64,000 nt of DNA. It comes from Actinomycetota bacterium. GTDB lineage: Bacteria; Actinomycetota; Thermoleophilia; Solirubrobacterales; 70-9. The notes beneath the pieces are model-generated. The model was not told where the DNA came from. It worked only from the letters and a program-made list of their open reading frames with translations, and did not search any database. The first letter of the stretch is position 1. Each line of letters opens with the position of its first letter. The stretch spans positions 136,148-200,147 of the forward strand of contig JAFDWD010001121.1 of the NCBI GenBank assembly GCA_018268695.1. Reading direction: 5' to 3'. Positions 7,134 to 45,564 of this stretch are shown here, one piece after another. The translations under genes were made by a program, and so were the position numbers.

Positions 7134-7164
7134 GCCACCGCGCCGGGATGAGGACCGGCCGCCC

Positions 7165-7551: not shown

Positions 7552-7613
7552 GGTGCAATTCGCCTCCTCGAGGTTCTTTCGTTTCGTGGGTGTCGCCGGC
7601 CGGCTCATCGCGG

Positions 7614-26479: not shown

Positions 26480-28264
26480 CTAGGCCGCGCCCGCCACCGC
26501 CGGCTCCGCCTCCTCGGGCTCCGGCTCGTCGTCGGGATCGGCCTCGGGCACCAGCTCGAGCGCCTCGCCCGAGAGGCCCGCACTCCGCGCGAGGCGGTCG
26601 CGGCCAGGCTCGGCGGCGGCCTCGGGCGTCGTGTAGAGGGGCGCCAGATCGGCGGCGCGCTCTTCGCCGAGGCAGGCCTCGGCCTCCCTCCACAGGGCCG
26701 CCGGCGCCAGCCCCTGCAGTTGCTCCTCGCGGCCGATGGTGTATGGGAGTTCGAGGTTCGGCCGCGCGGCCGCGCCGAGCACGCTCTGGTCGGCGAAGAC
26801 GGCCGAGACGCACGCGGCGAAGATCCGGCCGATCAAGGCCGGGCCCGTGGATGCCTTGCGCCATTCGGCCTCGAGCAGGCCGGTGATCTCGTCGACCGAG
26901 GGGTATTCCTCGACCATCCTCGAGCCGCCCCGCCCGGGCCGGAAGTCGCGTTTGAGCCAGGCCTCGCGCACCACCCGGTGCCCGCCCGCGATCTCGCGGC
27001 CGAGGAACTCAAGGAAGAGCACCGCGATCACCCGGGCCTGGTCGAGTGAGACCTCGCCCTGGTAGTCGAAGCGGTTGGTCAGCTCGCGGTCCAGGTGGCC
27101 GTTGGCGGCCTTGCCCCGTAGGGCTTCCTCCTTGCGGCGTTCCCGGGCGGCCTTGGGATCCTCGCGTTCGGCCGGCATCTCGACGGGCTCACCGCGCTCG
27201 ATCTCACCGCTGCTCTCGGCCAGCTCGGCGGCCGCCGCGCGCGCCCAGTCGGCGGCGAAGGCGGCGTCGACGAGGACACCAGAACGGCGGTAGGCCCCCT
27301 CGCGGTACTCGATCAACGCCTCGAAGGCGCGGGCCCGATCGGCATCTTCCTCGCTGACATGAGCGGTGCGTAGTTCGGCGGGGACCGATGCCAGGGAGCC
27401 GTCGATCGCCTCCAGCGCCTCCTCGACGCCGGGCACCTGGGACTCGGCGACGAGGCCCTCGGTGGCCGCGGTGGAGATCCGCGATGTGACCTCGTCGAGA
27501 TTGACGGTGTCGTGGGGCCCGAAGGGGATCAGGAAAGCCCCGTCAGGCTGTTTCTCCTCGTCGGCGAGGCGTCGCAGCGCCGCGGCAGGGTCGCCGTCGA
27601 GCGCGGCCTGGCTCTGGGCCCCGCTCGCGACCCGCTCGGCGAGCGCCTCGGCGACGCCGGGTGCCTTCGCGGCGATCGGCGCCAGGGTGGCCGCGTTCCG
27701 CAAGGTCAGCTCCCCCGCGGCGAGGCGCTCGCGCACCGGCTCGGGAAGCTCGAGCAGAGCCATGCGTGTCTCCGCCAGTTCATGGGTCATCCCGAGGTGG
27801 TCGGCCGCGCCCCCGAGGCTGAAGCCGAAGCGTGAGATCAGGCCCGCCAGGAGCATCGCCTCCTCGAGCGGGGTGAGTTTCTCGCGCAGCGCGTTCTCGG
27901 CGAACGCCATCGCCAGACGGGTCGGCTCGTCGACCTCCTCGTCGACCCCGAGCACCATCGAGGGCACCCGCGGGCGCCCGGCCCGGCGGGCGGCGAGCCA
28001 ACGCCGTTCGCCGGCGATCAGCTCGAAGTCCTCCTCGCCGAGTTCACGCACGAGGACCGTCTGCAGGGTCCCCATCCGCTCCGTCGAGGTCGTCAGCGTC
28101 GCCAGCGCCGGCTCCGAGGCGCTGCGGCGAGGGTTGGCGCCGGGCCTGATCCGGTCGACCGGCAGCCAGCGTAGGGGACGCTCGCGCTCCCCCATGCCGG
28201 CCTCGATCTGCTCCTGCCCCTCGATGTGGACCGGGGGCCTCTCCATCACGGTGGCGTTGCTCAT
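26480..28264 (-). CDS. ParB/Spo0J-like partition or regulatory protein
   Basis: The 594 residues begin with a ParB N-terminal domain: LRWLPVDRIRPGANPRR, FELIAGERRWLAARRAG (Box I-like) and AMAFAENALREKLTPLEEA (Box II). A helix-turn-helix around GGAADHLGMTHELAETRM follows, then a long C-terminal region that is not standard. AGGAGG sits six bases before the ATG at 28264. No ParA lies beside it. It may segregate or silence the excised element, or act as a DNA-loading clamp; the length is about twice that of a typical ParB. Confidence 0.8.
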   Translation of the reverse strand: MSNATVMERPPVHIEGQEQIEAGMGERERPLRWLPVDRIRPGANPRRSASEPALATLTTSTERMGTLQTVLVRELGEEDFELIAGERRWLAARRAGRPRVPSMVLGVDEEVDEPTRLAMAFAENALREKLTPLEEAMLLAGLISRFGFSLGGAADHLGMTHELAETRMALLELPEPVRERLAAGELTLRNAATLAPIAAKAPGVAEALAERVASGAQSQAALDGDPAAALRRLADEEKQPDGAFLIPFGPHDTVNLDEVTSRISTAATEGLVAESQVPGVEEALEAIDGSLASVPAELRTAHVSEEDADRARAFEALIEYREGAYRRSGVLVDAAFAADWARAAAAELAESSGEIERGEPVEMPAEREDPKAARERRKEEALRGKAANGHLDRELTNRFDYQGEVSLDQARVIAVLFLEFLGREIAGGHRVVREAWLKRDFRPGRGGSRMVEEYPSVDEITGLLEAEWRKASTGPALIGRIFAACVSAVFADQSVLGAAARPNLELPYTIGREEQLQGLAPAALWREAEACLGEERAADLAPLYTTPEAAAEPGRDRLARSAGLSGEALELVPEADPDDEPEPEEAEPAVAGAA

Positions 28265-28315
28265 CGCCACCTCCTCTCATCTCGAAGTCGCGGCGCGCGG
28301 CGCCGCCTTGCTCTC

Positions 28316-30076
28316 TCAGCGGGCACCGAGGGCCTCGACCGCGACGCTGCCGATCACCGCGGCGATCTCCAGGGGCACGCCGACGGAGACCAGTGCGCTC
28401 TCGCCGTGGGTGACGGGCTCGGAGCCGATCCCGATCGAGACCACGCCGCAGCCGCTCGCACGCAGCTCGCTGATGTTCCGCTCGCCGGCCTCGGCCCACG
28501 GCGCGGACACCCAGACGCCGTCGCCGACGAGGAACAGGAGCCGCGGCCGGCGGCGGTCAAACAACGGCAGCACCGCGCGCAGCAGCTCGATCCCCTCGCC
28601 GACATCCTCCGAGCCGCCGACGGCCGAGACCTCGGGCACCTCGCCGAGACGACGGCCCGCCCGGCAGAGCAGCTTCGCCTCGTCGCCGAAGAGCGAGACC
28701 GCGGCCCGCCCGCCGACCTGCTCGACCGCCGTGTGGACCACCCAGGCGACCGAGGCGAGCGGTCCCTCGAATGGGCCCATCGAGCCCGAGACGTCGACCG
28801 CGATCCCGACCACCGGCTGCCATAGCTCGGCGAGGACGGTCCGCCGGGTGGCGAAGGCGAGGCCGCGGATCGGCGCCCCGCGCTCGAGCTCCGACGCCTG
28901 GCGCATCGCGCCGCGGCCCGAGAAGCGCCCGGGCGGGATGACACGCCCCTCGCGGACGAGGCGCTTGGAGCGCGCCTCCTGCAGGGCGTGGGCGAGGCGC
29001 CGGGCGGCCGTCCGCTCGATCGCGACCGGAGGCCGCCCGCCGGTCTCTGGGATCCCGGGCCCGAGCCCGAAGCCGTGCCCTCGGAAGAGGGCCAGGCGCC
29101 TCGACGCCGCCGCTCCCCCCTCGGCGATCTCGCGGGCCAGCTTGCGCAGCTCGGGGTCGACACCGCCTTCTCGGGGGTCGAGTTCGACCGCGGCGGCGCG
29201 GGCGCTCCGCTCCGCGACGGCGAGTGGGCCGCTCGCCTCCTCCCAGCTGGGGGCATCGCCGTCTCCGGCGGCGCCACCTTCGCCTCCTTCGGCCTCCTCG
29301 CCGGGTCCCCCGCCCCCGGCGCCGCCGGCTTCCTCCTCCTCGGTCGGGGCGAGCTCGGCCAGGCGCCGGGCGCCCTCGGTCAGCGCCGCGATCGCGTCTC
29401 GGTCGGGCGCGGCGCAGACCTCGGCGACGATCTCCTTCACCGTCTCCAGGTCTTCGGCACCGAGAACGGTGGTGAAGCGCGCTTCGCTGTCGAGGACGTC
29501 GGCGGCACGCAGGTTGCCGGCGGGCACGCGCGAGCAGATCAGGACCGCGCCCTTCACGGCCCGGGCGCGGCTCATCGGCGCCAGCGGGTCCTCGGGTCGA
29601 TGCTCGAGGAGGAGCTTGGTGATCGCTGCGCGCAGGTAGCGCGCGACCCGCGGGACCCCTTCGATCAGCCGAGCCTCCATGCGGCCCTCCTCGAGCCACT
29701 TCGCGCGTTCGAGCAGCTCTTCGGGGATCTCCTGCATCGCCCGGGGCGTCGGGGTGTGTTTGACGTGCCCGCACTCGTGGAAGAGGACGCCGAGGACGAC
29801 GACGAGCGCCTTCAGCTGGTCGCCGTCGGGTTCGGCGGGGATCTCCTCCGGCGTGCAACCGAGCAGCTCGCCGTCGAGCAGGATCACGTTGGTGAGCCGG
29901 TTGACGAGGCCCGCGACCGGCGCCGAGGCCTTCGGGTAGCACTTGACGAGGACCCCGCCGACGATCGAGAGCGCCGCCTTGGTCAGCGCGGCGCTCGCCT
30001 GGCCCCAGCCGCCCGCCATGGCCGAGGGCTGGACACGTTCGGCGGGCAGCCGCCGGAACGCCTCCTTCCAGCCCAT
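28316..30076 (-). CDS. vWA-domain protein (CobT/YehP-like) with an HExxH motif
   Basis: This protein of 586 residues has FHECGHVKH (HExxH-type zinc motif) at about 120. A Glu/Gly-rich acidic linker lies near 260-310. A C-terminal von Willebrand A domain has the MIDAS motif AVDVSGSMGP (about 420) and ends with GCGVVSIGIGSEPVTHGES. It starts two bases after the stop of the AAA gene, so the two form a MoxR/CobS-vWA pair. Such pairs remodel or load metal or protein complexes. Whether the HExxH acts as a peptidase is unknown. Confidence 0.75.
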   Translation of the reverse strand: MGWKEAFRRLPAERVQPSAMAGGWGQASAALTKAALSIVGGVLVKCYPKASAPVAGLVNRLTNVILLDGELLGCTPEEIPAEPDGDQLKALVVVLGVLFHECGHVKHTPTPRAMQEIPEELLERAKWLEEGRMEARLIEGVPRVARYLRAAITKLLLEHRPEDPLAPMSRARAVKGAVLICSRVPAGNLRAADVLDSEARFTTVLGAEDLETVKEIVAEVCAAPDRDAIAALTEGARRLAELAPTEEEEAGGAGGGGPGEEAEGGEGGAAGDGDAPSWEEASGPLAVAERSARAAAVELDPREGGVDPELRKLAREIAEGGAAASRRLALFRGHGFGLGPGIPETGGRPPVAIERTAARRLAHALQEARSKRLVREGRVIPPGRFSGRGAMRQASELERGAPIRGLAFATRRTVLAELWQPVVGIAVDVSGSMGPFEGPLASVAWVVHTAVEQVGGRAAVSLFGDEAKLLCRAGRRLGEVPEVSAVGGSEDVGEGIELLRAVLPLFDRRRPRLLFLVGDGVWVSAPWAEAGERNISELRASGCGVVSIGIGSEPVTHGESALVSVGVPLEIAAVIGSVAVEALGAR

Positions 30077-30078
30077 CG

Positions 30079-31041
30079 CTATTCGACCCGCAGGGGATCG
30101 AGCGCCACGCCGCCCGTGACGTGGGCCTGGAGGGCCTCGCTCATCGCCACCCGCGACTCCTCGGGGCAGAGCCCGAGCAGGTTCCGGGCCGCCGTCAGCG
30201 GGTCGAAGACCGCCGCGACCGCCTTGAAGGCGAGGAGCTCGCGCAGCTGCGGGGCCCACGTCGCGGGTCCCGCCTCTCCCGGGGCGATGCCGGCGAGCGG
30301 GTCCTGCGCCTCGAACTCGCGGTTCAGCTTCTCGGCCGCCGACACCGCGTCGACCGGGACGCCGAGGCGCCTGGCGGTCGCCGCGTCGAACCCGACGTAG
30401 ACGTGGATCGCGCAGCGCGAGGCGAGCGCTTCGGAGAACGTCGTGCCGGGGAGGTTGGGGTTGTAGGCGATGATCGCGCCGAAGCCCTCCTCGGCCTCCA
30501 CCACCTCCCCGCCGCACTCGTTCAGGGTCAGCCGGCGGCGGGCGTCGAGGGCGGGGAAGACGCGGCTCTGCACCCTCGGGTCACCCTGGGTGATGTCGTC
30601 GCCGAACCAGAGCTTGCCCTTCCGGAGCGCGCGGGTCAGCGAGCCGTCGCCCCACTCCCATCCCTTCTCGGGGGCGGGGAAGAAGCTGCCGGTGATGTCC
30701 TCGACCTGGGTGCCCTCCGAGAACTCCTGGGTGATCACCCGGCCCTCGCCGAGCGCGGCCTCGACGAGGGTCGTCTTGCCGGTGCCCGGCGGGCCGTAGA
30801 GGCAGACGTTGAAGCCCGCCTCGATCGCCTTGCGGATGAACTCGACGTCGTCCATGCCGGCGATCCGTCGGACGGTGTAGGGCTCGCGGCCCGCGCCGAG
30901 CGGGATGGTGCGTCCTTCCGGGGATCCTCCTTCGGAGCCCCCAAAGTCGGTTGGTTCGATGTCGACGCCGGCGGCCCTGGCCGCCATATGCCGAAGCGTG
31001 CTGACACCGCCCGTCTCCGGGCGTGCGGTTGCGGTGGTCAA
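30079..31041 (-). CDS. MoxR/CobS-type AAA+ ATPase
   Basis: The 320 residues have Walker A GPPGTGKTTLVEAAL, a Walker B-like KLWFGDDITQGDP (Asp-Asp where most have Asp-Glu) and GAIIAYNPNLPG with a trailing Arg region, as in MoxR and CobS. TTG is the start, with GAGAGGAGCACGAT before it. It is translationally linked with the vWA gene, which fits an ATPase with its adaptor. Confidence 0.82.
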   Translation of the reverse strand: MTTATARPETGGVSTLRHMAARAAGVDIEPTDFGGSEGGSPEGRTIPLGAGREPYTVRRIAGMDDVEFIRKAIEAGFNVCLYGPPGTGKTTLVEAALGEGRVITQEFSEGTQVEDITGSFFPAPEKGWEWGDGSLTRALRKGKLWFGDDITQGDPRVQSRVFPALDARRRLTLNECGGEVVEAEEGFGAIIAYNPNLPGTTFSEALASRCAIHVYVGFDAATARRLGVPVDAVSAAEKLNREFEAQDPLAGIAPGEAGPATWAPQLRELLAFKAVAAVFDPLTAARNLLGLCPEESRVAMSEALQAHVTGGVALDPLRVE

Positions 31042-31144: not shown

Positions 31145-33754
31145 TCAGGCGGCGCGCCGGACGGTCTTCCGCCGCGCGGCGAAGATCTGGGCGGCGACCT
31201 TCATCTTGGTCGAGGCGCCCTCGCGATCGGCGAGCTCGGTCGCGAGTCCGGCGAACTGCCGCGCCAGCTCCTCCGAGCCCCCCTCGCCGGGGGCCGCGCC
31301 GGCGTCTTCGCCGCGGTTGAGGACGCCGTCGACCTCGGCCGCGCGGGGGATCAGGATGCCCGCCCGGTGCAGCTCGCAGGGATAGTTGAGGAGGGCGAGC
31401 AGGACGCCCACCGAGTCGAACTCCGAGCCGGTCCGCGTCGCCCGCCCGATCCGCTGCTCGAAGGGCCGCGGCGTCCAGGGCAGGTCGTAGTGGCCGACCA
31501 GGGAGGCCGGCAGGTTGTGGCCCCGCCTGCCGACCGGGCTCATCAGCATCACCGGGAACTCGCCGAGCCGGAAGGAGCGCTTGAGGCGGGCCGCCTCGCG
31601 CTCCCCGATACCGCCGATGAAGAGCGGCGCCTCGACCCCGTGGGTATCGGCGAGCTCGCGGGAGAGCAGCCGCAGGAGCTCGACCGACTCGGCGAAGAGC
31701 AGCGTCTTCTCCCCGTCGGCCGCGGCCGCGGCCGCGGTCCCCGCGATCCAGGCCCGCTTGCTGGGGCCGGTCCTGACCACGGCGTCGATCAGGCCTTCGG
31801 ACTCCAGGAGCGCGGCGGCGACCGCCTTCGAGGCGCGCAGTGCCTCGGCGTCGGAGGCGGCGAGGAGCGCGACCTCGGTCGCCGAGAGCAGGAGGCCCCG
31901 GGTCGAGGCCATCCGCCTCCGCAGGACGGCCAGCTCGGAGTCGTCGGGCGCCAGGCCGGCGGCCCGCTCGACCTGCTCGCGCAGGGTGCCGAAGAGCTGC
32001 GCGATCCGCTCCTCGGCGGCGTCCAGCAGCGCCAGCTCGGCGAGCGTGGGGTCGATGATCTTGAACTCCGGGTCGTCGAGCTCGGGCATGTAGTCCTTCA
32101 TGTCCTCGCGGGTGAGCCGGACCATCGTCGGGCCCATCGCCCGGCGCAGGCGGCGCTGGGAGACCTCGTCGAAGGTCGAGTAGCGGCTCGAGAGCGGCTT
32201 CTCGCGAAGCGCCTCGCGGTCGTTGCGGGCAAAGGCCTCCAGGGCGTCGTATTCCTGGTTGGTTCTGCCACGTGGGGTCGCCGTGATCAGCCCCGCGACC
32301 TTGGCCCGCTCGCGCAGGCGCCACAGTGCCCGGGCAAGCTGCGTGCCTGGGTTGGCGAGCGCCTCGTCGGCCTCCTCGACGACTAGGTCGTCGTAGGTCA
32401 GGACGCGCAGGTCCTCGACCGCGGTGCGGACCTGGTCGAAGGTCGCCATCACGATCCCGGGCTCCGGCCCGAGCTGGCGATCGAAGGCGATCAGCCCGGG
32501 CGCGATCCGCCGGTCCTCGGCGACGTGCACGGCGACCCCCGGCCAGAACTTCGGGATCTCCCCCTCGACCCATTCGGAGCGGATGTAGCGGGGCAGGGCC
32601 ACGCACATCCGGTAGGCCGCGAGCTCGGCGGCCTTGCCGCGGCAGGCGATCAGGGTCATCGGCGTCTTGCCGGTCCCGACTTTCGAGAAGTTCAGCATCC
32701 CGACCTCGGTCGCCCGGTGCCGGCCGACCGCGATCCGCTGCGGGGGGAGCAGGTCGCCGTCGAGGGCCGGCCGCGCCGCCGCCATCGCCAGGACGTCGGC
32801 GACTTCGGGATCGAGGACGACCTTGGCGCCCCCCTCCCTGGCGGCCCTGACCTCGCGCCTCGCCTCCTCGGCGCTCACCTCACGCGCGATCGCCAGCGGC
32901 CAGTCGCTCGCCTGGCCATGGACGACCTCGGCGAGGCCGGGCAGGCCGGGGACCCGGCGGGCGACCAGGTGCCCGCGGGCGAGGACCTCCAGCGGCTCGA
33001 GGATCCCTTCCGGATCGTCGACCTCCACCCCGGCCTCGCTCATGTCGTGGGCGAGCTCGAGGGCCTCGTGGGCCAGCAATGCCTCGGGCGGGCGCGGGGT
33101 CTCATAGGGCCAGGCGTTCACCGGGCACCCCTCCGGGAGCCAGCCGACCGGGCGGGTCAGGATCCGGCCGAAGAGGCCGCCGGCGTCGTTGGCGCGGAGG
33201 ACGACCGCCATCTGCGCGAGCGGGCCCTCCTCGCCGTGCTCGCACACCCCGACGCGCGGCCTCGCGGAACCGAGCTTGCCGAGCTCGGCGGCGAGCTTCT
33301 CCTGCCGGGTGGCGACGCGGCGGTTCTGCGCCGCCCAGGCGCCCTTGGTGTAGGGGATCTCGGGCGGGATCAGGTCGAGGACCGCCTGCACCGCGCGACT
33401 GTCGGCGCCGGGGACCTGGAAGCTGCGCTCGCTGCGCCAGCCGCCCGCGCGGGCCGTGATCCCCAGCGCGAAGACCTCGCGCACGTAGGGACGGACCAGG
33501 ACCGAGCGCCGCAGCAGCTGGTCGGGGCCCAGCGCGGGGCGCTCGACCCCTGCCAGGGTGAAGCGGAAGCCGAGCGGCGCCTCGTCCCGTGGGTGGGCAC
33601 TGCCGAAGCGCGCCGCCAGCTCGCGCTGGGCCGCGGCGGCTTCGCGGGCGCGTTGCTCACGGCGCCGCTCACCTGCCGCCCGGCCGCGCGCGGGTGGCGT
33701 CGGCGCGGGCATACCGGGCAGGCTGGGCGCCGGAGCGGTTGGGGTCTTGCTCAA
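31145..33754 (-). CDS. SNF2/DEAD-type helicase-like ATPase
   Basis: The 869 residues have a Walker A-like FSKVGTGKTPMTLI, a Walker B-like DDLVVEEADEALANPGT, TATPRGRTNQEYDALE, and a helicase C-terminal lobe (MLMSPVGRRGHNLPASL, then PFEQRIGRATRTGSEFD with the Arg finger). SNF2-type enzymes move on double-stranded DNA and remodel bound proteins. The TTG at 33754 overlaps the upstream stop (TTGA) and follows GGAGGTG, deciding the start. The N-terminal 300 residues are unknown. Confidence 0.8.
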   Translation of the reverse strand: MSKTPTAPAPSLPGMPAPTPPARGRAAGERRREQRAREAAAAQRELAARFGSAHPRDEAPLGFRFTLAGVERPALGPDQLLRRSVLVRPYVREVFALGITARAGGWRSERSFQVPGADSRAVQAVLDLIPPEIPYTKGAWAAQNRRVATRQEKLAAELGKLGSARPRVGVCEHGEEGPLAQMAVVLRANDAGGLFGRILTRPVGWLPEGCPVNAWPYETPRPPEALLAHEALELAHDMSEAGVEVDDPEGILEPLEVLARGHLVARRVPGLPGLAEVVHGQASDWPLAIAREVSAEEARREVRAAREGGAKVVLDPEVADVLAMAAARPALDGDLLPPQRIAVGRHRATEVGMLNFSKVGTGKTPMTLIACRGKAAELAAYRMCVALPRYIRSEWVEGEIPKFWPGVAVHVAEDRRIAPGLIAFDRQLGPEPGIVMATFDQVRTAVEDLRVLTYDDLVVEEADEALANPGTQLARALWRLRERAKVAGLITATPRGRTNQEYDALEAFARNDREALREKPLSSRYSTFDEVSQRRLRRAMGPTMVRLTREDMKDYMPELDDPEFKIIDPTLAELALLDAAEERIAQLFGTLREQVERAAGLAPDDSELAVLRRRMASTRGLLLSATEVALLAASDAEALRASKAVAAALLESEGLIDAVVRTGPSKRAWIAGTAAAAAADGEKTLLFAESVELLRLLSRELADTHGVEAPLFIGGIGEREAARLKRSFRLGEFPVMLMSPVGRRGHNLPASLVGHYDLPWTPRPFEQRIGRATRTGSEFDSVGVLLALLNYPCELHRAGILIPRAAEVDGVLNRGEDAGAAPGEGGSEELARQFAGLATELADREGASTKMKVAAQIFAARRKTVRRAA

Positions 33755-34376
33755 GGTGCACCTCCGTGTGTCTTGGGGGCCCGGACGGGCGCCGAGGCGC
33801 CCCGGCCCGAGGTATGGATTCCGGCGACGGGCGACGGCGCCGTCGCGATGGGCTCGGCGTCGATCGGTATCTGCAGGCGCTCCAGGAGCGCCGCCGCGAA
33901 GGGCAGGGCGTCGGCGACCCGCGGCTCGAGCCATCCGCGGCTGTTCTCAAGCCATCCTTCGGGGCCTGAGAGCGACGGCTTGCACTGGCCCCGGCGCGAC
34001 GGTGGGGCCAGGTCAGACCGTCGTTCCCAGGGCCGATCTGTCTGATGCAGTCCCACTGCGCCGCGAGGGCGCGGTCGGGATCTGCCCCCTCGAGGCGCTC
34101 GTCGAGCCAACAACGTGCGTCGAGGAAGCGCCCGGCGGTCCTCACGAAGACATGGCCCTGGACCTCGTCCTTCTCGCACCCCTCGGTCTGGCGGTCGAAG
34201 GCGAAGACCAGCTGGACGGGGGTGAGCCGCCGGAGCGCTTCGGCGAACGAGTGGCAATGCCCGTTGGTGAAGACGTGTTCGGCGTCGGAGTCGAGCACGC
34301 CGTATCGCAGCTCCCTGACTTCGGGGAAGCCGAAGAGGATGTCGAAGCAATCCCACTCGGAGACCGGGGCGCTCAT
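33751..34376 (-). CDS. Hypothetical protein, frame broken in a G run
   Basis: The N-terminal part (MSAPVSEWDCFDILFGFPEV, then RLTPVQLVFAFDRQTEG) is read from 34376. The C-terminal part (GQCKPSLSGPEGWLENSRGW, ALPFAAALLERLQIPIDAEP) is in another frame and overlaps the helicase start. One more G in the run at 33989-33992 joins them; the span is then 209 codons exactly. The WDCF, GHCHSF and DARCWLDERL segments carry conserved-looking Cys/His. Function unknown. Confidence 0.5.
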
Positions 34377-35020
34377 CAGGCGATCAGCTCCGAGGCGGCG
34401 TCGAGCGCCAACTGGGGCGGCGCCGCGACCAGCCGCAGGCCCTCGGCGAGGTAGGCGTCGCGCCAGCGGACCCACTTGGTCCCGTCGACCGAGTCACAGC
34501 CGATCGCCTTCGCGTAGGCGATGCGCCTGGCGGAGTTGACGCGGCCCATGTGGACCCAGGTGCCGCGGCGCCTGGCCTCGGCTACCAGGGCGCCTGCATC
34601 GGCGCCGAGCTTCCATGTCGTCGAGCCCCCGATGAACAGGGCGTCGATCCGCGGCCACGCGGTGTCGAGCCAACGGCCGAGGCCCTCGAGGCCGTCCTGG
34701 GCCACGAGGGCGACCGGGAGGCCGCGCCTGGCCGGCGCCGAGCACCAGCGCTCGAACCGACGCGCGGTCTCGTAGGCGTCGCCGACCACGTCGGGCACGG
34801 TCACGAAGAGACGCCCCTCGATGCCCCGCAGCCGATCGAGCATCGCGCAGTAGGCGTCGATGTCGAGGCCCTGGAAGCAGTCGTTGTCGGCCGCCCACGG
34901 CACACCCCGCGCGGCCGTGTCGGCGATCCGCGGGAAGTGCCGGGGCTGCACGAGGCGACCGAGATTCGGATGCTTAAAGGCGAGCATCTGCGCCTCGGCC
35001 TGCGTCGCGAGCAGCAGCAT
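34376..35020 (-). CDS. DpdA/queuine tRNA-ribosyltransferase-like protein
   Basis: The 214 residues show a TIM-barrel-like pattern: ADNDCFQGLDIDAYCAML, LFVTVPDVVGDAYETARRF, PVALVAQDGLE, IDALFIGGSTTWKLGADAG, GTWVHMGRVNSARR and GCDSVDGTKWVRWRD. These match, from memory, the DpdA family related to TGT, which inserts 7-deazaguanine bases into DNA (cellular) or phage DNA. The protein is short, at the size of phage versions. It shares a base with the neighbouring gene. No other queuosine-type genes are visible in the window. Assignment is moderate. Confidence 0.6.
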   Translation of the reverse strand: MLLLATQAEAQMLAFKHPNLGRLVQPRHFPRIADTAARGVPWAADNDCFQGLDIDAYCAMLDRLRGIEGRLFVTVPDVVGDAYETARRFERWCSAPARRGLPVALVAQDGLEGLGRWLDTAWPRIDALFIGGSTTWKLGADAGALVAEARRRGTWVHMGRVNSARRIAYAKAIGCDSVDGTKWVRWRDAYLAEGLRLVAAPPQLALDAASELIA

Positions 35021-35350
35021 CTAGGTCCGCCCCGCCGGCGGCGTCATGTCGGCGGGCTCCACCGGCCGTGGCCGGATCCGCTCGGGGCGCGGGCGCCGCA
35101 CGTACCTCTCCTGGTAGTCGGCGCCGAGCGCCTCGACGACGTCGCGGCCCTCCTCGGGCCAGAAGGCGCCGATCAGGCGGACGAGCTTCTCGCCGCCCTG
35201 GTCGGGGCGGTCGAGCAGGACGCTGACCGCGCGCTCGGCGTCGTGGGCCCAGATCAGGCTGTAGCGGGCGCCGTCGATCCGCACCAGGCCGAGACGCTCC
35301 TCGTTCAAGGCGGTCCTGGGCGACTCGCGCTCGGTGGTCGCCGGGCTCAT
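35021..35350 (-). CDS. Hypothetical protein, 109 residues
   Basis: It has a beta-rich centre (RLGLVRIDGARYSLIWAHDA, AVSVLLDRPDQGGEKLVRLI) and a basic Pro-rich end. Its stop directly abuts the start of the DpdA-like gene and its ATG overlaps the stop of the preceding gene (ATGA). A small partner of the DpdA-like protein is possible but not shown. Confidence 0.55.
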   Translation of the reverse strand: MSPATTERESPRTALNEERLGLVRIDGARYSLIWAHDAERAVSVLLDRPDQGGEKLVRLIGAFWPEEGRDVVEALGADYQERYVRRPRPERIRPRPVEPADMTPPAGRT

Positions 35351-35676
35351 GACGCCGCTCCTTCGGGCTTCTTCACCGAGCCCGGGTCGGCGATCGCCCG
35401 CTCGGCGATCTCGATGCAGCGCTTACAGCTCGGCTCGTGGTCCTCGCCGCCACGGTGGAGCCCCCAGAAGCTCCAGCGCGACTTGCAGAGCGCGTCGCGG
35501 GCGTTGCGGTGGATGCGGCCGATCCGCACCTCCTCCTCGACGACGACGTGATCGCCGCCGCCATAGAGCGCGGTCTCCCGCGGGGTGTAGGCGTGCTCGA
35601 TGTGGGCGCCGAAGGGCAGCTGCTCGAGCAGCGTTTTGGAGGACCGCTCGGGCCCTGGATCGTTCACTGATTCCAT
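35347..35676 (-). CDS. Hypothetical protein with CxxC and His pairs
   Basis: The 109 residues include HIEHAYTPRETALYGGGDHV, WGLHRGGEDHEPSCKRC and an acidic end. The Cys and His residues may bind zinc. RBS-like GAGAGGAG precedes the ATG at 35676. No family is recognised. Confidence 0.5.
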   Translation of the reverse strand: MESVNDPGPERSSKTLLEQLPFGAHIEHAYTPRETALYGGGDHVVVEEEVRIGRIHRNARDALCKSRWSFWGLHRGGEDHEPSCKRCIEIAERAIADPGSVKKPEGAAS

Positions 35677-35693
35677 CTCCTCTCGTGAATCGG

Positions 35694-35720
35694 CCCTGGC
35701 GCGCGAGATCGCGGCCAGGG
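35694..35720 (-). promoter_or_regulatory. Intergenic hairpin
   Basis: CCCTGGC at 35694-35700 pairs with GCCAGGG at 35714-35720 with a 13-base loop. A second palindrome CGGCCG-CTCG-CGGCCG follows near 35746-35761. Both are in the gap between 35677 and 35829 in the leftward transcript. Confidence 0.4.
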
Positions 35721-35829
35721 ATCTCCTAGGAAGCTGTAGGCAGGGCGGCCGCTCGCGGCCGACCGGAACTCGACACCCGGTCTGCGACCTCCGGCGACCG
35801 AAGCTGGACGCCCGGATCGGAGGGCTACC

Positions 35830-36093
35830 TCAGGGCGACTTCCTGAAGCCCTCGAGGTCGACCCGGTAGCTGAATCTCGAGCCCTCGCGCCTGGTGAGGA
35901 AGCCCTTCCGACCCAGCGCCCGGAGCAAAAGGTGGACCGGTAGGGACGCCGGGACCAAGATGGCAGCACGGGCGATGGCCATGGATGCCCCGAGGCAGCC
36001 GACGGCGATCGCCGCGAACGCGACGAGGGGACGCAGGATCGGATTCTCGACCTCGCGCCCTCTCCACTCAACGTTCCATCGCACCCGGTTCAT
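35830..36093 (-). CDS. Small membrane protein
   Basis: The 87 residues have a basic start, one hydrophobic region (AFAAIAVGCLGASMAIARAAIL, about 26-47) and a basic C-terminus (GRKGFLTRREGSRFSYRVDL). The stop of the mIHF gene overlaps its start by 4 bases (ATGA). Role unknown. Confidence 0.55.
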   Translation of the reverse strand: MNRVRWNVEWRGREVENPILRPLVAFAAIAVGCLGASMAIARAAILVPASLPVHLLLRALGRKGFLTRREGSRFSYRVDLEGFRKSP

Positions 36094-36536
36094 CGCCGAC
36101 CTCCGATCGCGTTCGCGGGACCACCTGCCGAGCTGCCGCGGGAGCCGAGAAGCCGCGGCGCCGATCCGTCTGGCACCCGGCCGCGGCGGTCGGCCGCTCG
36201 TCTATTCAGGAGCGCGCGGACGAGGAGGCGGCGCTGCCGCTCGGTGAGCGCTCCGAGCTGTCTGCCCTCGGCGATCCGGAGTGGCATCAGCAACTTCCGC
36301 GCGCGGGTGGGCCCCCAGCGCCTCTGGCTCGTCAGTAGCTCTGCGACGCTCATCGTCGCGGCCTCCCACGGACAGGAGCTGACGACGTCGGCGGCGGCGA
36401 GATCGCCCCGCGCGACCGCGCGTTTCAGATCGGCCCTCGCGAGCCGGACCTTGTTTGCTCTCTCGAGCGCACCCAGATGCTGCGGGACCTCGGTTGCTGG
36501 GACCGCTTCCTCGGGTGCTGCCGTTGCAGAATCCAT
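36090..36536 (-). CDS. Actinobacterial integration host factor (mIHF) homologue
   Basis: The 148 residues include KVRLARADLKRAVARGDLA, then TMSVAELLTSQRRWGPTRAR and LLMPLRIAEGRQLGALTER. This matches the mIHF fold of mycobacteria and streptomycetes, a single-chain nucleoid protein with a helix-hairpin-helix-type DNA contact. An AAGGAGG sits before the ATG at 36536. In an ICE it could help integrase-mediated recombination or shape the element. The C-terminal 40 residues are an extra basic tail. Confidence 0.78.
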   Translation of the reverse strand: MDSATAAPEEAVPATEVPQHLGALERANKVRLARADLKRAVARGDLAAADVVSSCPWEAATMSVAELLTSQRRWGPTRARKLLMPLRIAEGRQLGALTERQRRLLVRALLNRRAADRRGRVPDGSAPRLLGSRGSSAGGPANAIGGRR

Positions 36537-36613
36537 TGGATTCCTCCTTGGTCGAATCGGATGGGATGGGCCTGCCGCCGCGCCAGGACGGCCGGCCGAT
36601 GGACCGCCCCGGG

Positions 36614-37507
36614 TCAGGCCGGGATCGGACCGCCGCCGACCGGGCACCGGTCCCAGTGCGGGCAGCCGTCGCCACCGACCCGCGGCGCGCACCACCAGCC
36701 GAAGTCGGGCGCGAGCGGCCACTCTCCGGGCTCGGTGGCGTCGAGATGGGCGATCATCCGCGCCACGCGGGCCACCCGGCGCTGGAAGCCGAGCAGCTGG
36801 CCGGTGCTGCGCGGAGCGGGCACGACCCGCCAGCGCGGGCCCTCCTCGGGCCGCTCGAGGGTCGCCGCGTGGAAGACGAACTCCGCCGGGTTCCGCTCGG
36901 CCCAGCGCATGAACGTCTGTGCGGTGGCCTGCAGGTCCCGGTAGGCGCGCTCCTCCTTCACCGTCGAGCGACCGAACTTGAGATCGGCCAGCAGCCGCGG
37001 ACACTCGAGGTCGAAGTAGCAGACGAATCGCCACTCCTGCCCGGCGTCGAAGCGGAAGCTGGCACGGCGCTCGACCGAGACCGGCTCGACCGACGGGGCG
37101 ATCTCGGTCAGGTAGTCGGCGACGGCACCCCGACACTGGACCTTGCCGAACTCCGGGTCGTCCTCGAGGCCGAGGACGGTTTCGCCGATCTTCGCGGCGA
37201 AGAGCACGAGCACGAGGTCGTCAAGCTCTGCCGTGCCCGGCGCCCGCCCCGCGATCCGCCCGGCGAAGTAGTGGGCGAGGGTGTCGCCGACCACCGAGCC
37301 GAGCGTCATCGAGAGGTTCGGCGGCACCTTCTCCCCGAGCAGGTAGGTGCGGCGGAAGGCCTCCGGGCACTTCTCGAAGGCCCGCAGGCTCGCCGGCGAG
37401 AGCGACTTCAGCCGCAGCCGGCGGCCGTAGCGTCGCGCCGGGAGCTGAAGCGGGACCGAGAGCGGGTCGACGGGGGCGGAGGCGCTCGGCCTCGCGATCG
37501 CACTCAT
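36614..37507 (-). CDS. Cas4/RecB-like PD-(D/E)XK exonuclease with an iron-sulfur-type Cys set
   Basis: The 297 residues begin with SPASLRAFEKCPEAFRRTYL (N-terminal Cys), carry the nuclease core LLADLKFGRS (D-x-K), AYRDLQATAQTFMRW (QxxxY-like position) and end with WWCAPRVGGDGCPHWDRCP. The one N-terminal and three C-terminal Cys fit a 4Fe-4S site as in AddB and Cas4. The start (37507) overlaps the preceding stop as ATGA. It likely resects ends for RecT annealing. Confidence 0.78.
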   Translation of the reverse strand: MSAIARPSASAPVDPLSVPLQLPARRYGRRLRLKSLSPASLRAFEKCPEAFRRTYLLGEKVPPNLSMTLGSVVGDTLAHYFAGRIAGRAPGTAELDDLVLVLFAAKIGETVLGLEDDPEFGKVQCRGAVADYLTEIAPSVEPVSVERRASFRFDAGQEWRFVCYFDLECPRLLADLKFGRSTVKEERAYRDLQATAQTFMRWAERNPAEFVFHAATLERPEEGPRWRVVPAPRSTGQLLGFQRRVARVARMIAHLDATEPGEWPLAPDFGWWCAPRVGGDGCPHWDRCPVGGGPIPA

Positions 37508-38358
37508 CCCGACCAGCCTGCCGCCGCCGGCGGCTCGCCCGAGCGCGCCGCCTCGATCACCTCGGCGATCGAGCAGTCCAGGCGGAAGCGGTGTCCGGTG
37601 GCTTCTTCGACCCGCAGGTACTCCGGGGCGAGCTCGGGATTCAGCCGGGCCGAGAGGACGAGGGCCGGTCTCGAGGCGAGGATGCAGAAGCGGCAGCTGA
37701 GCCGTGGCATCCCGGCGGCGTAGGCGGGGTGGATCAGGTCGGCGATACGGCTGGCCTCGACCCGCTCCCAGACCTCCTCTACCGACCACTCGTGCAGCGG
37801 CAGGAAGTCGGTGACCTCACGCCGCCCGTTGCTGGCCCCCTGGTCGACGCGGAGCGCCGGGCGCCTGGCCCGGGCCGGTGACTCCTGGGCGCGCATCCCC
37901 ATCACGTTCAGGAGACGCACCCGCTCCCGACCGCCCTGCTCGCGGCGCTCGCCGACCAGCCGGGTCATCAGCCGCCGCAGCGGTCCGCGCTTCAGATCCG
38001 AGGAGCACCAGCGCTGCCGGGCGCTCGGCCACATCCCCCGGCGCTCGACGCGTCCGAGCAGGTCGGGGCCGGAGGCCGAGACGACGAAGAAGCGCAGCCC
38101 GTAGCGCTCGGCCTGCTCACGGGCGAGCTCCCTGGTCCCCGCCCACTCGGCGCGGCCGAGGTCGGCATGGCCGACGACGACCCGGTCGAGGACGCCCTGG
38201 CGGGCCGCCTCCGTGGCGATCACGTCGAGGGTCGCCATGCTGTCCTTGCCCGCCGAGGAGTTCACCAGGACGACGTCGTAGGCACCGAGCTCGGCGAGCG
38301 TGCCCGCTGCCGCGCTGGGGGTGGTGAAGAGCTGCGCCTGACCGGCGGCGCCGCTCAC
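37504..38358 (-). CDS. PAPS-reductase/DndC-like PP-loop protein
   Basis: The 284 residues have a PP-loop VLVNSSAGKDSMATLD, RVVVGHADLGRAEWAGT, WCSSDLKRGPL, and SCRFCILASR near residue 220. The loop and Cys pattern match phosphoadenylylsulfate-reductase family proteins, including DndC-like members that act in phosphorothioate DNA modification. No dndA/B/D/E or sulfur-carrier genes are seen nearby, so the reaction is unknown. The GTG start overlaps the preceding stop. Confidence 0.7.
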   Translation of the reverse strand: MSGAAGQAQLFTTPSAAAGTLAELGAYDVVLVNSSAGKDSMATLDVIATEAARQGVLDRVVVGHADLGRAEWAGTRELAREQAERYGLRFFVVSASGPDLLGRVERRGMWPSARQRWCSSDLKRGPLRRLMTRLVGERREQGGRERVRLLNVMGMRAQESPARARRPALRVDQGASNGRREVTDFLPLHEWSVEEVWERVEASRIADLIHPAYAAGMPRLSCRFCILASRPALVLSARLNPELAPEYLRVEEATGHRFRLDCSIAEVIEAARSGEPPAAAGWSG

Positions 38359-42270: not shown

Positions 42271-43518
42271 TCAATCGGCCTCTTCGGGCCCCGGGTCCGC
42301 GTCGAGCAGCGAGGGCGTCTGGCCGGGTTCCTCCGCACCGGGCGCCTTCGCCGTCGCGGCCTCGGGCAGCACCGCGGCGGGCTCGGCGGCTGCCGTCGCC
42401 TCGGCCTCGGCTTTCTGGTGGCGCTCGGAGATCCACTGCAGCAGCGCCCGGGCGCGCACCTCGACGTTCCCCTTGCCGTCCTTCAGGGCGACCTTGCAGT
42501 TTCGTTCGAGCTCGACCGGCGTGATCCCGGCCTCCTCGGCCTCGGCGAGCGCGGCGGCGAGCACGGAGGTCTGCTCGTCGGTGAGTCGGTCGGGCATCTG
42601 GTCGAAGAGCGCCTCGGTCAGTTCGCCGCGCAGCCGCCCGAACTCACCGGCCTCGAACGCCTGGGCCAGGGTGCGCCTGGTCGCGGGGTGCGCCGGTGCA
42701 CCGCTCGGCTGTCCCTCGGCGGCGTCGACGATCACGGAGGGTCCCCCCGTGCCGGGACCTTCGGGCGCCGGCGGCTCGGGTGCCGGAGGCGGCGGGCCGG
42801 CCGGTGGGGTGGCGGCCGCGGGAGCCGCGGCCCCGGGTGACCCTGGGGCTCCCGCGGCGGGAGGCACATCGACCGCGGCGGCGGCGGAGCCCTCCCCGCC
42901 GCCGCCGATCGCGGCCAGCGAGATCCCCAGCTCCTCGGCGGTATAGAGGCCCGAGAGCTGGGCGGGGAAGGCCTTGCGCAGGGCGAGGGCCTCGGCGCGG
43001 ATGCTCAGCATGTGGGCCGGCTTGCCGCCGACCTTGTTCCACAGCGAGTCGGCGCCGGCGTCGCCCGTCGGGGCGAAGTCGTGCCAGTTCGCGGTGCCGG
43101 TGGTCGGCACCTTGGTCCCCTTGCGGTGGACCCGCACCCGGGCGGCGATCGGCGTGTCCTCGCCCGACCAGTAGTCGGTCCAGTTGCCCTCGGAATCGCA
43201 CCATTCCGGGTCGCTCTGGCCCTCGTAAAGTTTGGTGCGCTCGGCCAGCAGGCGCATGCCGTCGATCGTCGCGACTGCCCGCATCGAACCGTTCTCCCAG
43301 AGGGCGTAGATCTGCCCGCCCAATGGCTCCAGCTTGTAGAGCTGGCATTCGATCAGAAACTGGTCGACCTCTTTCTCGGTCGGGGTCACACGCCGGGCGA
43401 CGCCGCCGGGGCCGACCTCGTACTTCTTCATCGACGCTTTGACCGCCTCGCGGTAGCCGATGGCGTCGTGCTTTGGCCCATCCCCGTTTCGGGATGGGGC
43501 CTCTGCGATTGCAGACAT
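42271..43518 (-). CDS. RecT/Bet-family single-strand annealing protein
   Basis: The 415 residues show the phage Bet/RecT core in the first 210: FLIECQLYKLEPLGGQIYAL, MRAVATIDGMRLLAERTKLY, SDPEWCDSEGNWTDYW, and HMLSIRAEALALRKAFPAQL. The rest is a Pro/Ala/Gly linker and a helical tail. It coats and anneals single-stranded DNA, probably with the Cas4/RecB-like nuclease. A gap with two hairpins separates it from the uvrD gene. Confidence 0.85.
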   Translation of the reverse strand: MSAIAEAPSRNGDGPKHDAIGYREAVKASMKKYEVGPGGVARRVTPTEKEVDQFLIECQLYKLEPLGGQIYALWENGSMRAVATIDGMRLLAERTKLYEGQSDPEWCDSEGNWTDYWSGEDTPIAARVRVHRKGTKVPTTGTANWHDFAPTGDAGADSLWNKVGGKPAHMLSIRAEALALRKAFPAQLSGLYTAEELGISLAAIGGGGEGSAAAAVDVPPAAGAPGSPGAAAPAAATPPAGPPPPAPEPPAPEGPGTGGPSVIVDAAEGQPSGAPAHPATRRTLAQAFEAGEFGRLRGELTEALFDQMPDRLTDEQTSVLAAALAEAEEAGITPVELERNCKVALKDGKGNVEVRARALLQWISERHQKAEAEATAAAEPAAVLPEAATAKAPGAEEPGQTPSLLDADPGPEEAD

Positions 43519-43539
43519 CCGATCTCCTTTCCGGCACGG

Positions 43540-43576
43540 GGCCCCAAACCGGGGCCGCGCGCCGCTGACGCGGCGC
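43540..43576 (-). promoter_or_regulatory. Intergenic hairpins between uvrD-like and recT-like genes
   Basis: GGCCCC 43540-43545 pairs with GGGGCC 43551-43556 around AAACC. GCGCCGC 43559-43565 pairs with GCGGCGC 43570-43576 around TGAC. Both lie between the UvrD stop (43633) and the RecT start (43518). Confidence 0.45.
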
Positions 43577-43632
43577 CCAGGATCCAGGCGCCGCAGTTGC
43601 GTGAGTGGCGGGCCCGCTCGGGACCCTGGGCG

Positions 43633-45564
43633 CTACAGGCCGGCCTCGGTGACGAAGCGCGAGGTCTTCACCTGCTTGCCCCAGCGGCGCGCGCAGCTCG
43701 ACATCACGAGGCTCTCCCGCGCGCGGGTCAGCGCCACGTAGGCGAGACGCCGCTCCTCTTCGGTGCGGCCCTCCTGGATGGCGCGGCTGGAGGGCATCAC
43801 CCCCTCGTCGAGGCCGGCCAGCCAGACGTGGGCGAACTCGAGGCCCTTGACCGCGTGGACGGTTCCGAGCGCGAGTGCCGATGCCGAGCGCCGCGAGTCG
43901 GTCGAGTAGAGCACCAGCTCCTGCAGGAACTCCGCCAGGGCGGGGCGACGGCCCTCGACCACGCACTGCTGCTGGTAGGAGCGCGCCGCCCGAAAGAGCT
44001 CGCGGACGCTGCCCAGTTCTCCGGCGCCCGCCCGCCCGCGACGGCGGAGCTGATCGGGGATGCCGGAGATGACGATGATGTCGCCGACCAGCATCTTGAA
44101 CTCGCGCCGCCCGCCGCGGGCGATCTCCCGGATCCGCTCCATCGACTCCCCGAAGGCGATCGCCGCCTTCCCGCGGCTCTCGCCGATGCCGGCCTCCCAG
44201 GGCACCAGGCAGACCTGCTCGTAGCCGAGACCGCGGGACTTGGCGGCCTCGATCAGCGCTCGGGCGCTCGCCGGCCCGAGGCCCGGACGGGACTCAAGGG
44301 CCCTGGCGAAGGCGGCCGAGTTGGCGGGGTTTACGGTCAGCGTCAGCCAGGCGAGCGCGTCGCGGACCTCCGAGCGCGCCCACAACGCCCGTTCCCCGAG
44401 GGTCGTGTAGGGGATGCCGCGGGTGCCGAGGGCGATCTCCAGGTCCTGGCGCACCCGCAGGCCCCGCATTCGCACCAGGACCCCGAGCTCCCCGGGCGCG
44501 ACTCCCGAGGAGATGTGGGCCTTGGCCCAGGCGGCGATCGCCTCGGCCTCCTCCTCCTCGGAGTCGTAGTGCTCATAGATCGGGTCGGGGCCCGGGCCGT
44601 AGGCGGCTTCGAGCGCCTTCGGGCGGCGCTGCTCGTTGTGGGCGATCAGCCGCAGGGCGGAGTCGACGATGCCGCCGTGCGAGCGGTAGTTGCGTCGCAG
44701 GACCACTGCGGCCGCGCCGGGGAAGTAGCGCTCGAAGTCGACCGTGAACTCCGGGTCGGCGCCGCGGAAGGCATAGACGATCTGATCGTCGTCGGCGACG
44801 ACCGTCAGCCCGGCGCCGGTCGGCGCCAGCAGGCGGATCATCGCGAACTGCGCCTCGGAGACGTCGTGGAACTCGTCGACGAGGAGGGCCTTGACCCCGG
44901 CCCGCCAGGGCGCCGCGTGGCGCTCGTCGGAGAGGACGATCGCCGCGGCGCGCACCAGGCCCTCGAAGTCCAGGGCGTTCGCGGCGCGCAGGTCGGACTC
45001 GTAGATGTCGAAGGCGCGGGCCGGGCCCGCATCGCCGCGCACCACCCAGAGCGCGGAGTCCTCGAGGTTCGCCTTGGCGGTCCCGATCCGGCGCACCAGC
45101 TCATGGGCGTCGAGGCCGGGCTCGGCCCGCTCGACCGCCGAGCGCGCCAGCTGCAGCTGGTCGTCGGAGTCGAAGATCGAGAAGCGGGGATCGAGGCCGA
45201 CGATCTCGGGGTGGCCGCGGACGACCTGGGCGGCGAGCGCGTGGATCGTCGAGATCCTCACCCCCGCCTGCTCGGAGGCGAGCTCGGCCGCCACACGCTC
45301 GGACATCTCCTTCGCGGCCTCGTTCGTGAAGGTGATCGCGACCACCTGGGCGGGCGCGACCTCACCCCCTCTTACGAGGTGGATGATCCGCTGCGTCAGG
45401 ACGCGGGTCTTGCCCGCGCCCGGACCGGCGACGACCAGGAGCGGCCGCTCGAGCGGGGCGTGGACCGCCGCCCCCTGATCCGGGTCGAGGCTGCGCTCCT
45501 CCGATGGAGCGGAGGCCTGTCGGACGGCCGCCTCGAGCGGCGGCGCCTCGGTTGCCTGGGCCAT
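43633..45564 (-). CDS. UvrD/PcrA-family superfamily 1 helicase
   Basis: The 643 residues carry the standard SF1 motifs: LLVVAGPGAGKTRVLTQR (I), VAITFTNEAAKEMSERV (Ia), LLVDEFHDVSEAQFA (II), VVLRRNYRS (IV) and LAYVALTRARESLVMSS (VI). It unwinds DNA in the 3'-to-5' direction by family. The ribosome-binding site GAAAGGAGGTGAG is optimal. Likely role: processing of the transferring strand or of recombination intermediates. Confidence 0.9.
   Translation of the reverse strand: MAQATEAPPLEAAVRQASAPSEERSLDPDQGAAVHAPLERPLLVVAGPGAGKTRVLTQRIIHLVRGGEVAPAQVVAITFTNEAAKEMSERVAAELASEQAGVRISTIHALAAQVVRGHPEIVGLDPRFSIFDSDDQLQLARSAVERAEPGLDAHELVRRIGTAKANLEDSALWVVRGDAGPARAFDIYESDLRAANALDFEGLVRAAAIVLSDERHAAPWRAGVKALLVDEFHDVSEAQFAMIRLLAPTGAGLTVVADDDQIVYAFRGADPEFTVDFERYFPGAAAVVLRRNYRSHGGIVDSALRLIAHNEQRRPKALEAAYGPGPDPIYEHYDSEEEEAEAIAAWAKAHISSGVAPGELGVLVRMRGLRVRQDLEIALGTRGIPYTTLGERALWARSEVRDALAWLTLTVNPANSAAFARALESRPGLGPASARALIEAAKSRGLGYEQVCLVPWEAGIGESRGKAAIAFGESMERIREIARGGRREFKMLVGDIIVISGIPDQLRRRGRAGAGELGSVRELFRAARSYQQQCVVEGRRPALAEFLQELVLYSTDSRRSASALALGTVHAVKGLEFAHVWLAGLDEGVMPSSRAIQEGRTEEERRLAYVALTRARESLVMSSCARRWGKQVKTSRFVTEAGL

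What the first reader, a model, noticed from the sequence alone, without database searches (positions are those of the whole stretch)
34376..38358. DpdA-like and PAPS-reductase-like genes: possible DNA modification carried by an ICE
A protein with DpdA/TGT-like motifs (TVPDVVGDAYET, IDALFIGGSTTW) and one with a PP-loop and DndC-like Cys set (SSAGKDSMATLD, SCRFCILASR) lie four genes apart, among co-transcribed unknown genes. A 7-deazaguanine or sulfur modification of the transferred DNA would protect it from host restriction. The supply genes (queC/D/E, dndA/B/D/E) are not in the window, so the host or the outer part of the element would have to provide them.
Basis: inference. Interest (0 to 1): 0.75.

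Follow-up and report, generated by a model that had tools for sequence, protein, structure and literature searches.

The report
Short DpdA-like gene on conjugative element
A conjugative element of an uncultured actinobacterium carries a small enzyme that probably swaps guanine in DNA for a salvaged queuosine-type base, and in many related phages this gene sits beside what looks like the importer for that base; the nearby sulfur-chemistry gene is probably a separate passenger.

Summary
Both genes are real. Gene A (34376-35020, minus) belongs to a large short family (phrog_15826) that phage annotators call DpdA-like. Its confident model is a TIM barrel; 38 of the first 50 PDB matches are tRNA-guanine transglycosylases (TGT). 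Residues I equate with the TGT catalytic pair are invariant in 89 of 89 relatives, but the zinc site is absent and neither the TGT nor the Pfam DpdA model matches. It is under purifying selection. The new point is context: a PF02592 gene, the queuosine-precursor-transporter type, lies beside relatives of A in 49 of 107 loci (33 of 80 groups), 49 of 49 on the same strand; QueE or QueC flank a few others. So the family is tied to 7-deazaguanine, apparently mostly by salvage. No such supply gene was found in this window; the nearest relative's draft genome has TGT but no QueC, QueA or PF02592. Gene B (37504-38358) has a PAPS/APS-reductase fold, is closer to BrxP than DndC, is missing from the nearest relative and is rarely near A elsewhere; probably independent. 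Conjugation genes, an integrase and a tRNA-Thr remnant support an integrated conjugative element. The modified base itself is untested.

The parts
34376..35020 (-). Gene A: short DpdA-like / TGT-superfamily protein, 214 aa
   Evidence: phrog_15826 7.8e-46; AF2 model pLDDT 95.6; 38 of the first 50 Foldseek PDB matches are TGT; D45, Q108, K137, H157, R160-N162, D179 invariant in 89 of 89; dN/dS about 0.27 against L081
37504..38358 (-). Gene B: PAPS/APS-reductase-fold PP-loop protein, 284 aa
   Evidence: PF01507 2.8e-11; BrxP 3.8e-18, DndC 3e-5; AF2 model pLDDT 92.6, nearest folds APS/PAPS reductases
36614..37507 (-). PD-(D/E)XK nuclease-like protein, overlaps the end of B by 4 bases
   Evidence: PF12705 5.7e-8
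36090..36536 (-). H2TH-domain protein (mIHF-like; that name is recalled)
   Evidence: PF22525 1.7e-5, just under its cut-off
35347..35676 (-). small conserved protein of unknown function
   Evidence: no Pfam, PHROG or NCBIfam match; 85% identical in L081
35021..35350 (-). small protein of unknown function directly upstream of A
   Evidence: no family match; 73% identical in L081
33669..34376 (-). YunG-like protein (weak), shares one base with the end of A
   Evidence: PF24591 0.0036, below cut-off
31145..33712 (-). SNF2-type helicase
   Evidence: Helicase_C 5e-13
26480..30987 (-). ParB, VWA (CoxE-like, below cut-off) and AAA_5 (MoxR-type; name recalled) proteins of the same gene run
42271..45564 (-). 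RecT (42271-43518) and UvrD helicase (43633-45564) upstream in the same run
24961..25809 (-). N6 DNA methylase carried by the element
   Evidence: PF02384 3.1e-14
1218..8516 (-). conjugation genes: TrbL/VirB6-like, AAA_10 (VirB4-type), TcpE-like, TcpC-like
   Evidence: AAA_10 is over its cut-off, the TrbL, TcpE and TcpC matches are below theirs
59162..60646 (+). tyrosine integrase
   Evidence: PF00589 1.6e-20
60822..60881 (-). tRNA-Thr (GGU)-like remnant beside the integrase, likely attachment site
   Evidence: Rfam tRNA 30.5 bits against 29; ARAGORN finds nothing here by default and tRNA-Thr only at a lowered threshold

Best explanation
Gene A is a short DNA-guanine transglycosylase of the DpdA/TGT superfamily. 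Using one Asp as base and one as nucleophile, it exchanges guanine in the element's DNA for a free 7-deazaguanine base. The base is salvaged (preQ0, preQ1 or queuine) rather than made by the element; in many relatives a PF02592 gene of the queuosine-precursor-transporter type is placed next to it. The likely gain is protection of incoming DNA from restriction. Shown by computation: family, fold, invariant residues, gene linkage, purifying selection. Inferred: DNA as substrate, which base, and the protective role. Gene B is an independent PAPS-reductase-type accessory enzyme of unknown substrate.
For: Family phrog_15826; submitters' label DpdA-like. TIM-barrel model at pLDDT 95.6; 38 of the first 50 PDB matches are TGT, mostly entries of one bacterial enzyme; 7 of the first 50 viral matches are named queuine/queuosine tRNA-ribosyltransferase. 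Positions I equate with Z. mobilis TGT D102, Q203 and D280 (numbering recalled) are invariant in 89 of 89, D156 in 88 of 89. PF02592-type gene in 49 of 107 loci, 49 of 49 on the same strand; largest gap between open frames 756 bases, against 11.7 of 49 expected within 1.5 kb by random placement; 33 of 80 groups at 85% identity. Of 50,697 phage records 24 hold A-type, 30 the transporter type, 15 both, from three phage lineages. QueE over its curated cut-off beside A in L022 (L023 and L024 look like the same locus); QueC beside A in L038. Phages Atcoo and Arib1 lack A and keep a truncated transporter gene, with different breakpoints.
Against: No match to PF01702 or PF23859 in any of 89 members; profile comparison with nine TGTs is weak (E 0.12, probability 0.5%). 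VIA-align's rows are pyruvate kinases and ribulose-phosphate epimerases, so the fold alone does not pick TGT. 58 of 107 loci show no transporter-type neighbour (some are cut short), and on the tree the label is clustered by descent (12 changes against 18.6 in shuffles, 0 of 500 as low), so 49 loci are far fewer independent cases. No transporter in the window or in the nearest relative's draft genome. A deletion across two neighbours can take both by chance. Mycobacterium phage Orion, with an orphan DpdA not found by my A search, had no detectable modification (PMC6884629, passages), and that paper saw no correlation of YhhQ with any phage group.
Confidence: 0.58

Rival explanations
1. A is a salvage enzyme, not a DNA modifier: a TIM-barrel hydrolase or base-exchange enzyme that frees or converts imported queuosine-type nucleosides for host tRNA modification.
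For: Tight link with a PF02592 gene; six genomes that hold an A-type gene have TGT and a PF02592 gene side by side (G009, G013, G014, G015, G017, G018); phage Sonali has A-type and a separate gene annotated queuine tRNA-ribosyltransferase with the preQ0 genes.
Against: The two Asp of a transglycosylase are invariant. PF23859 rang in 0 of 48 A-type viral records, which would leave A as the only consumer of the base, but that search had no positive control and the records may be fragments.
Confidence: 0.2
2. A is a TIM-barrel enzyme unrelated in function to TGT (for instance an epimerase or phosphodiesterase).
For: VIA-align rows are pyruvate kinase and ribulose-phosphate epimerase; no TGT sequence match.
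Against: TGT-type residues conserved; transporter-type, QueE and QueC neighbours.
Confidence: 0.12
3. A and B form one pathway giving a sulfur-bearing deazaguanine base in DNA.
For: Both lie close in the window, L082, L087 and phage ReqiPine5; PAPS-type genes also lie near other DpdA-type genes in phage Gilgamesh and L124. B's fold is also near [4Fe-4S] tRNA thiolases NcsA/TtuA.
Against: L081 keeps A and its neighbours but only about 43 residues of the end of B. PF01507 in 4 of 48 A-type viral records (3 over cut-off), two of them within about 7 kb of A, one of these under the cut-off. No A- or DpdA-type match near B-type genes in five phage regions or in 7 of 8 viral loci.
Confidence: 0.1
4. 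B takes part in phosphorothioation (Dnd, Ssp or BREX type 4) as first proposed.
For: B matches BrxP 3.8e-18 and, weakly, DndC and SspD.
Against: No Dnd, Ssp or BREX partner recognised among the 40 of 76 predicted window genes given to Pfam or the ten given to PADLOC apart from generic helicase and methylase matches; DndC scores 17.1 bits against a cut-off of 290.4.
Confidence: 0.07

Closest known systems
Short 'DpdA-like tRNA-guanine transglycosylase' of actinophages (phrog_15826; e.g. GreaseLightnin gp55, Sonali gp81, ReqiPine5 gp03)
   Same: Same sequence family
   Different: Here on a conjugative element and without a neighbouring transporter-type gene
DpdA of Pfam PF23859 (e.g. Gilgamesh gp114)
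   Same: TGT-like fold class (recalled for DpdA) and proposed chemistry
   Different: No PF23859 match; shorter
Bacterial tRNA-guanine transglycosylase (PF01702)
   Same: Fold; equivalents of D102, D156, Q203, G230 and D280 by motif
   Different: No zinc-site cysteines, no PF01702 match, 214 residues against about 350-390 in the nine TGT stretches fetched
dpd islands with a YhhQ gene (PMC11888242) and archaeal viruses HCTV-1 and HCTV-16 with YhhQ and 7-deazaguanine genes (PMC8651126)
   Same: 7-deazaguanine DNA-modification genes with a preQ0 transporter; salvage proposed for the islands (passages)
   Different: There YhhQ is in about 9% of islands or in two viruses; here the short family, and 33 of 80 groups
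BrxP of BREX type 4, and CysH
   Same: PP-loop PAPS-reductase relatives
   Different: No BREX partners seen; three conserved Cys; substrate unknown

Membership tests
Short DpdA-like family (phrog_15826) | profile match over the protein | tested here: met
   7.8e-46, residues 5-192
TGT superfamily | TIM-barrel fold with catalytic Asp pair | tested here: met
   the residue mapping is by motif and recalled numbering; hhalign puts the IGG and DG motifs in register but at E 0.12
TGT (PF01702) | family HMM match | tested here: not met
TGT (PF01702) | CxCxxC..H zinc site | tested here: not met
   Cys only at 48, 58, 93, 175
DpdA (PF23859) | family HMM match | tested here: not met
DpdA function | 7-deazaguanine inserted in DNA | not testable with these tools
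   needs LC-MS
DpdA function | supply of the base (synthesis or uptake genes) with the gene | tested here: inconclusive
   none found in window; transporter-type, QueE or QueC genes in many relatives
DndC | DndC model is best match and over its cut-off | tested here: not met
   17.1 bits against 290.4; BrxP better
PAPS reductase superfamily (PF01507) | HMM over cut-off and fold | tested here: met
   44.2 bits against 22.5
ICE | integrase plus conjugation apparatus | tested here: met
   three of the four T4SS matches are below their cut-offs
ICE | relaxase or coupling protein, and both attachment sites | tested here: inconclusive
   one likely att at a tRNA-Thr remnant; left end outside the window; 40 of 76 predicted genes were given to Pfam and none matched a relaxase

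The most novel reading that the evidence does not exclude
A widespread class of mobile elements, phages and ICEs alike, modifies its DNA with a 7-deazaguanine base that it never makes: a minimal 200-residue DNA transglycosylase is paired with an importer of queuosine precursors, so protection from restriction depends on scavenged vitamin-like bases, and some members, such as this ICE, use the host's salvage pool instead of carrying the importer.
Probability: 0.42. Interest if true: 0.72.

Novelty: new variant of a known kind. Interest (0 to 1): 0.5.

Why it matters
Orphan DpdA phages are an open puzzle: Hutinet 2019 counted 76 phages with DpdA and no preQ0 or G+ genes and could not predict their modification (PMC6884629, passages). 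Salvage through YhhQ has been proposed before for dpd islands, and YhhQ has been noted in some archaeal viruses (passages); the strong linkage in this short family turns the idea into a direct, cheap test: feed the base and measure the DNA. It would also add base modification by salvage to the anti-restriction means of conjugative elements.

Tried and rejected
The DndC / phosphorothioation reading of B: rejected and the lack of recognised partners. A single A+B pathway: kept as a minor rival because B is lost in L081. Supply of preQ0 by the element: no QueC, QueD, QueE, FolE or transporter match in the window (some of these models rest on one or a few phage sequences); the rest of the 200,147-base contig could not be read. 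A preQ1 riboswitch as independent evidence: none in the window or in 13 of the loci. A RecT scan meant as a neighbourhood control confirmed no locus, so the only outside controls for the transporter link are nine B-centred loci and five B-centred phage regions, with no transporter match in any. A PDB sequence search with the A profile gave only chance-level matches. PF23859 in 48 viral records gave nothing, but its control rang nowhere. The VIA-align list of 50 rows for A shows no TGT; that is not counted as absence. Of nine phage records with B-type genes I read six regions; the second Gilgamesh record, phage Jeremy (same identity figures as Dolphis) and the Klebsiella phage were not read. 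Three papers that may already describe this family (a 2024 review of 7-deazaguanine derivatives, a 2023 paper on further phage bases, a 2023 Dpd structure paper; content recalled) are not held. Novelty therefore rests on listings and abstract starts from searches, and on passages only of PMC6884629, PMC11888242, PMC8651126, PMC11945000, PMC12839542 and PMC11130926; a term search in PMC13329287 found none of the terms.
Full report
What is there. The window is 64 kb of a contig of 200,147 bases, 71.6% G+C; no genome is held for it. A simple gene model puts both genes of the finding in a long minus-strand run from about 45.6 to 26.5 kb, with many starts and stops touching or overlapping: UvrD, RecT, several unknown genes, gene B (PAPS), a PD-(D/E)XK nuclease, an H2TH protein, small unknown genes, gene A (DpdA-like), a weak YunG-like gene, an SNF2 helicase, an AAA_5 ATPase, a VWA protein and ParB. 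The quoted motifs are present at the stated places.

The element. The left end holds TrbL/VirB6-like, AAA_10 (VirB4-type), TcpE-like and TcpC-like genes; AAA_10 matches at 6.5e-34, the other three are below Pfam's cut-offs. The right end holds a tyrosine integrase (59162-60646) followed at 60822-60881 by a tRNA-like piece (Rfam 30.5 bits against 29) that ARAGORN misses by default and reads as tRNA-Thr (GGU) at a lowered threshold; to my eye its 3' half is diverged, as expected of an attachment site. No relaxase was recognised in the 40 of 76 predicted genes given to Pfam, and the left boundary lies outside. An integrated conjugative element is the best reading.

Gene A, family. A matches no Pfam or NCBIfam model but PHROG 15826 at 7.8e-46. 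4894 proteins match at E<=1e-3 among the 7999 candidates scored. In 50,697 phage records 24 hold a relative, several named 'DpdA-like tRNA-guanine transglycosylase' by their submitters. None of the 89 aligned relatives matches TGT (PF01702) or DpdA (PF23859). A profile comparison with nine TGTs is weak (E 0.12, probability 0.5%), although it aligns the IGG and DG motifs in register.

Gene A, context. Among 107 loci (80 viral, 24 from bacterial genomes, 3 phages picked by hand) a transporter-type membrane protein lies beside the relative of A in 49: 40 upstream, 9 downstream, all 49 on the same strand, with at most 756 bases between open frames; 11.7 of 49 would be expected within 1.5 kb by random placement. 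The model used was grown from ReqiPine5 gp04 within these same loci. With at least 1.5 kb on both sides it is 35 of 81. Grouping A at 85% identity it is 33 of 80 groups; the next recurrent neighbour, apart from other reading frames over A itself, is a C5-cytosine methylase in 12. All 12 candidates that I gave to Pfam match PF02592, 11 over its cut-off; the four given to NCBIfam match 'queuosine precursor transporter' TIGR00697, each below its cut-off. On a tree of 61 rows (23 with the transporter) the label needs 12 changes, fewer than in any of 500 shuffles (mean 18.6), so it is partly inherited, yet it occurs in both main halves; in the window's own set of 12 rows two have it, and L002, L003 and L004, 52-63% identical to A, have it but were too short for the tree set. 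In whole viral records PF02592 is found in 22 of 48. In phage records 24 hold A-type, 30 the transporter type and 15 both, from three lineages (ReqiPine5, the GreaseLightnin group, Aoka). Two relatives of GreaseLightnin, Atcoo and Arib1, keep a truncated transporter gene and lack A, with different breakpoints; a deletion across neighbours can take both by chance. As a small control none of nine loci and five phage regions centred on B-type genes has a transporter match.

Other 7-deazaguanine genes. QueE flanks A in L022 (1.2e-88, over its curated cut-off), with L023 and L024 alike, and more weakly in L039 and L040; QueC flanks A in L038. Full QueC is in 2 of 48 viral records; a third, partial match overlaps a PAPS gene. 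Phage Sonali carries an A-type gene and, five genes on, a gene annotated queuine tRNA-ribosyltransferase with QueC, QueD, QueE and GTP cyclohydrolase I; that gene matches no Pfam model. In 24 bacterial genomes with an A-type gene, full-length QueC is seen in 12. The genome of the nearest relative (L081) has TGT but no full QueC, no QueA and no PF02592 gene; it is a draft, so absence is tentative. The window itself has no match for QueC, QueD, QueE, FolE or the transporter. The base must come from the host's pool, from outside, or from genes in the unread part of the contig.

Gene B. PF01507 at 2.8e-11, model pLDDT 92.6, nearest solved folds APS and PAPS reductases. BrxP of PADLOC matches at 3.8e-18, DndC at 3e-5 and SspD at 5.8e-5; the DndC model of NCBIfam scores 17.1 bits against a cut-off of 290.4. 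Three cysteines are invariant. A 2026 BREX paper notes that BrxP lacks a cysteine dyad unique to DndC (PMC12839542, passages). In L081 A and its neighbours are kept, but only about 43 residues of the end of B remain and some 3 kb of other sequence stands in its place. PF01507 occurs in 4 of 48 viral records with A-type genes (3 over cut-off); two lie within about 7 kb of A, one of these under the cut-off. Against this stand four cases where both lie close: the window, L082, L087 and ReqiPine5, and two where B-type genes lie near another DpdA-type gene: Gilgamesh and L124. In five other phage regions with B-type genes neither the annotation nor my models show such a gene within 5-6 kb; DNA methylases are near in two. 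I read B as a separate accessory enzyme.

Literature. Hutinet 2019 (PMC6884629; passages) describes 76 phages with DpdA and no preQ0 or G+ genes, found no 7-deazaguanine in Orion but a little in Salmonella phage 7-11, and states that YhhQ homologues show no correlation with any phage group. A 2025 preprint reports YhhQ in about 9% of bacterial dpd islands and proposes salvage (PMC11888242, passages); archaeal viruses HCTV-1 and HCTV-16 are said to carry YhhQ in addition to such genes (PMC8651126, passages). So salvage feeding a DpdA is an idea in print. In the listings of searches I saw no paper on a link between this short family and the transporter; key reviews are not held, so it may be in print elsewhere.

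Verdict. Ordinary in being one more orphan DpdA-like gene; of interest because the family-wide transporter linkage makes a salvage-fed DNA modification directly testable, and because here the gene rides on a conjugative element.

Noticed in passing
window 60822-60881 (-): A tRNA-Thr (GGU)-like remnant lies just beyond the integrase, probably the attachment site that marks the right end of the element.
   Followed up: partly
window 54211-54289 (-): ARAGORN calls a tRNA-Arg (tcg) inside the RepB-primase-like gene 53963-54985; Rfam at gathering threshold does not list it, so it may be spurious.
   Followed up: no
L082:3930-6164, L087:10649-12451, L117:5661-7502: C5-cytosine methylase genes recur near A-type or B-type genes (12 of 80 A-type groups have one within 4 kb).
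   Followed up: partly
L124:9992-11692: In a viral contig a B-type PAPS gene stands directly upstream of a different DpdA-type protein that weakly matches Sonali gp87 but no Pfam model.
   Followed up: partly
L120:7462-12064: A B-type PAPS gene sits between a large protein that looks like a VWA/CobT type and an AAA ATPase (by eye), echoing the VWA and AAA_5 genes of the window.
   Followed up: no
L105 (phage Sonali): One phage carries both an A-type gene and a preQ0 gene set with a second transglycosylase-type gene, suggesting the two enzymes have different roles.
   Followed up: partly
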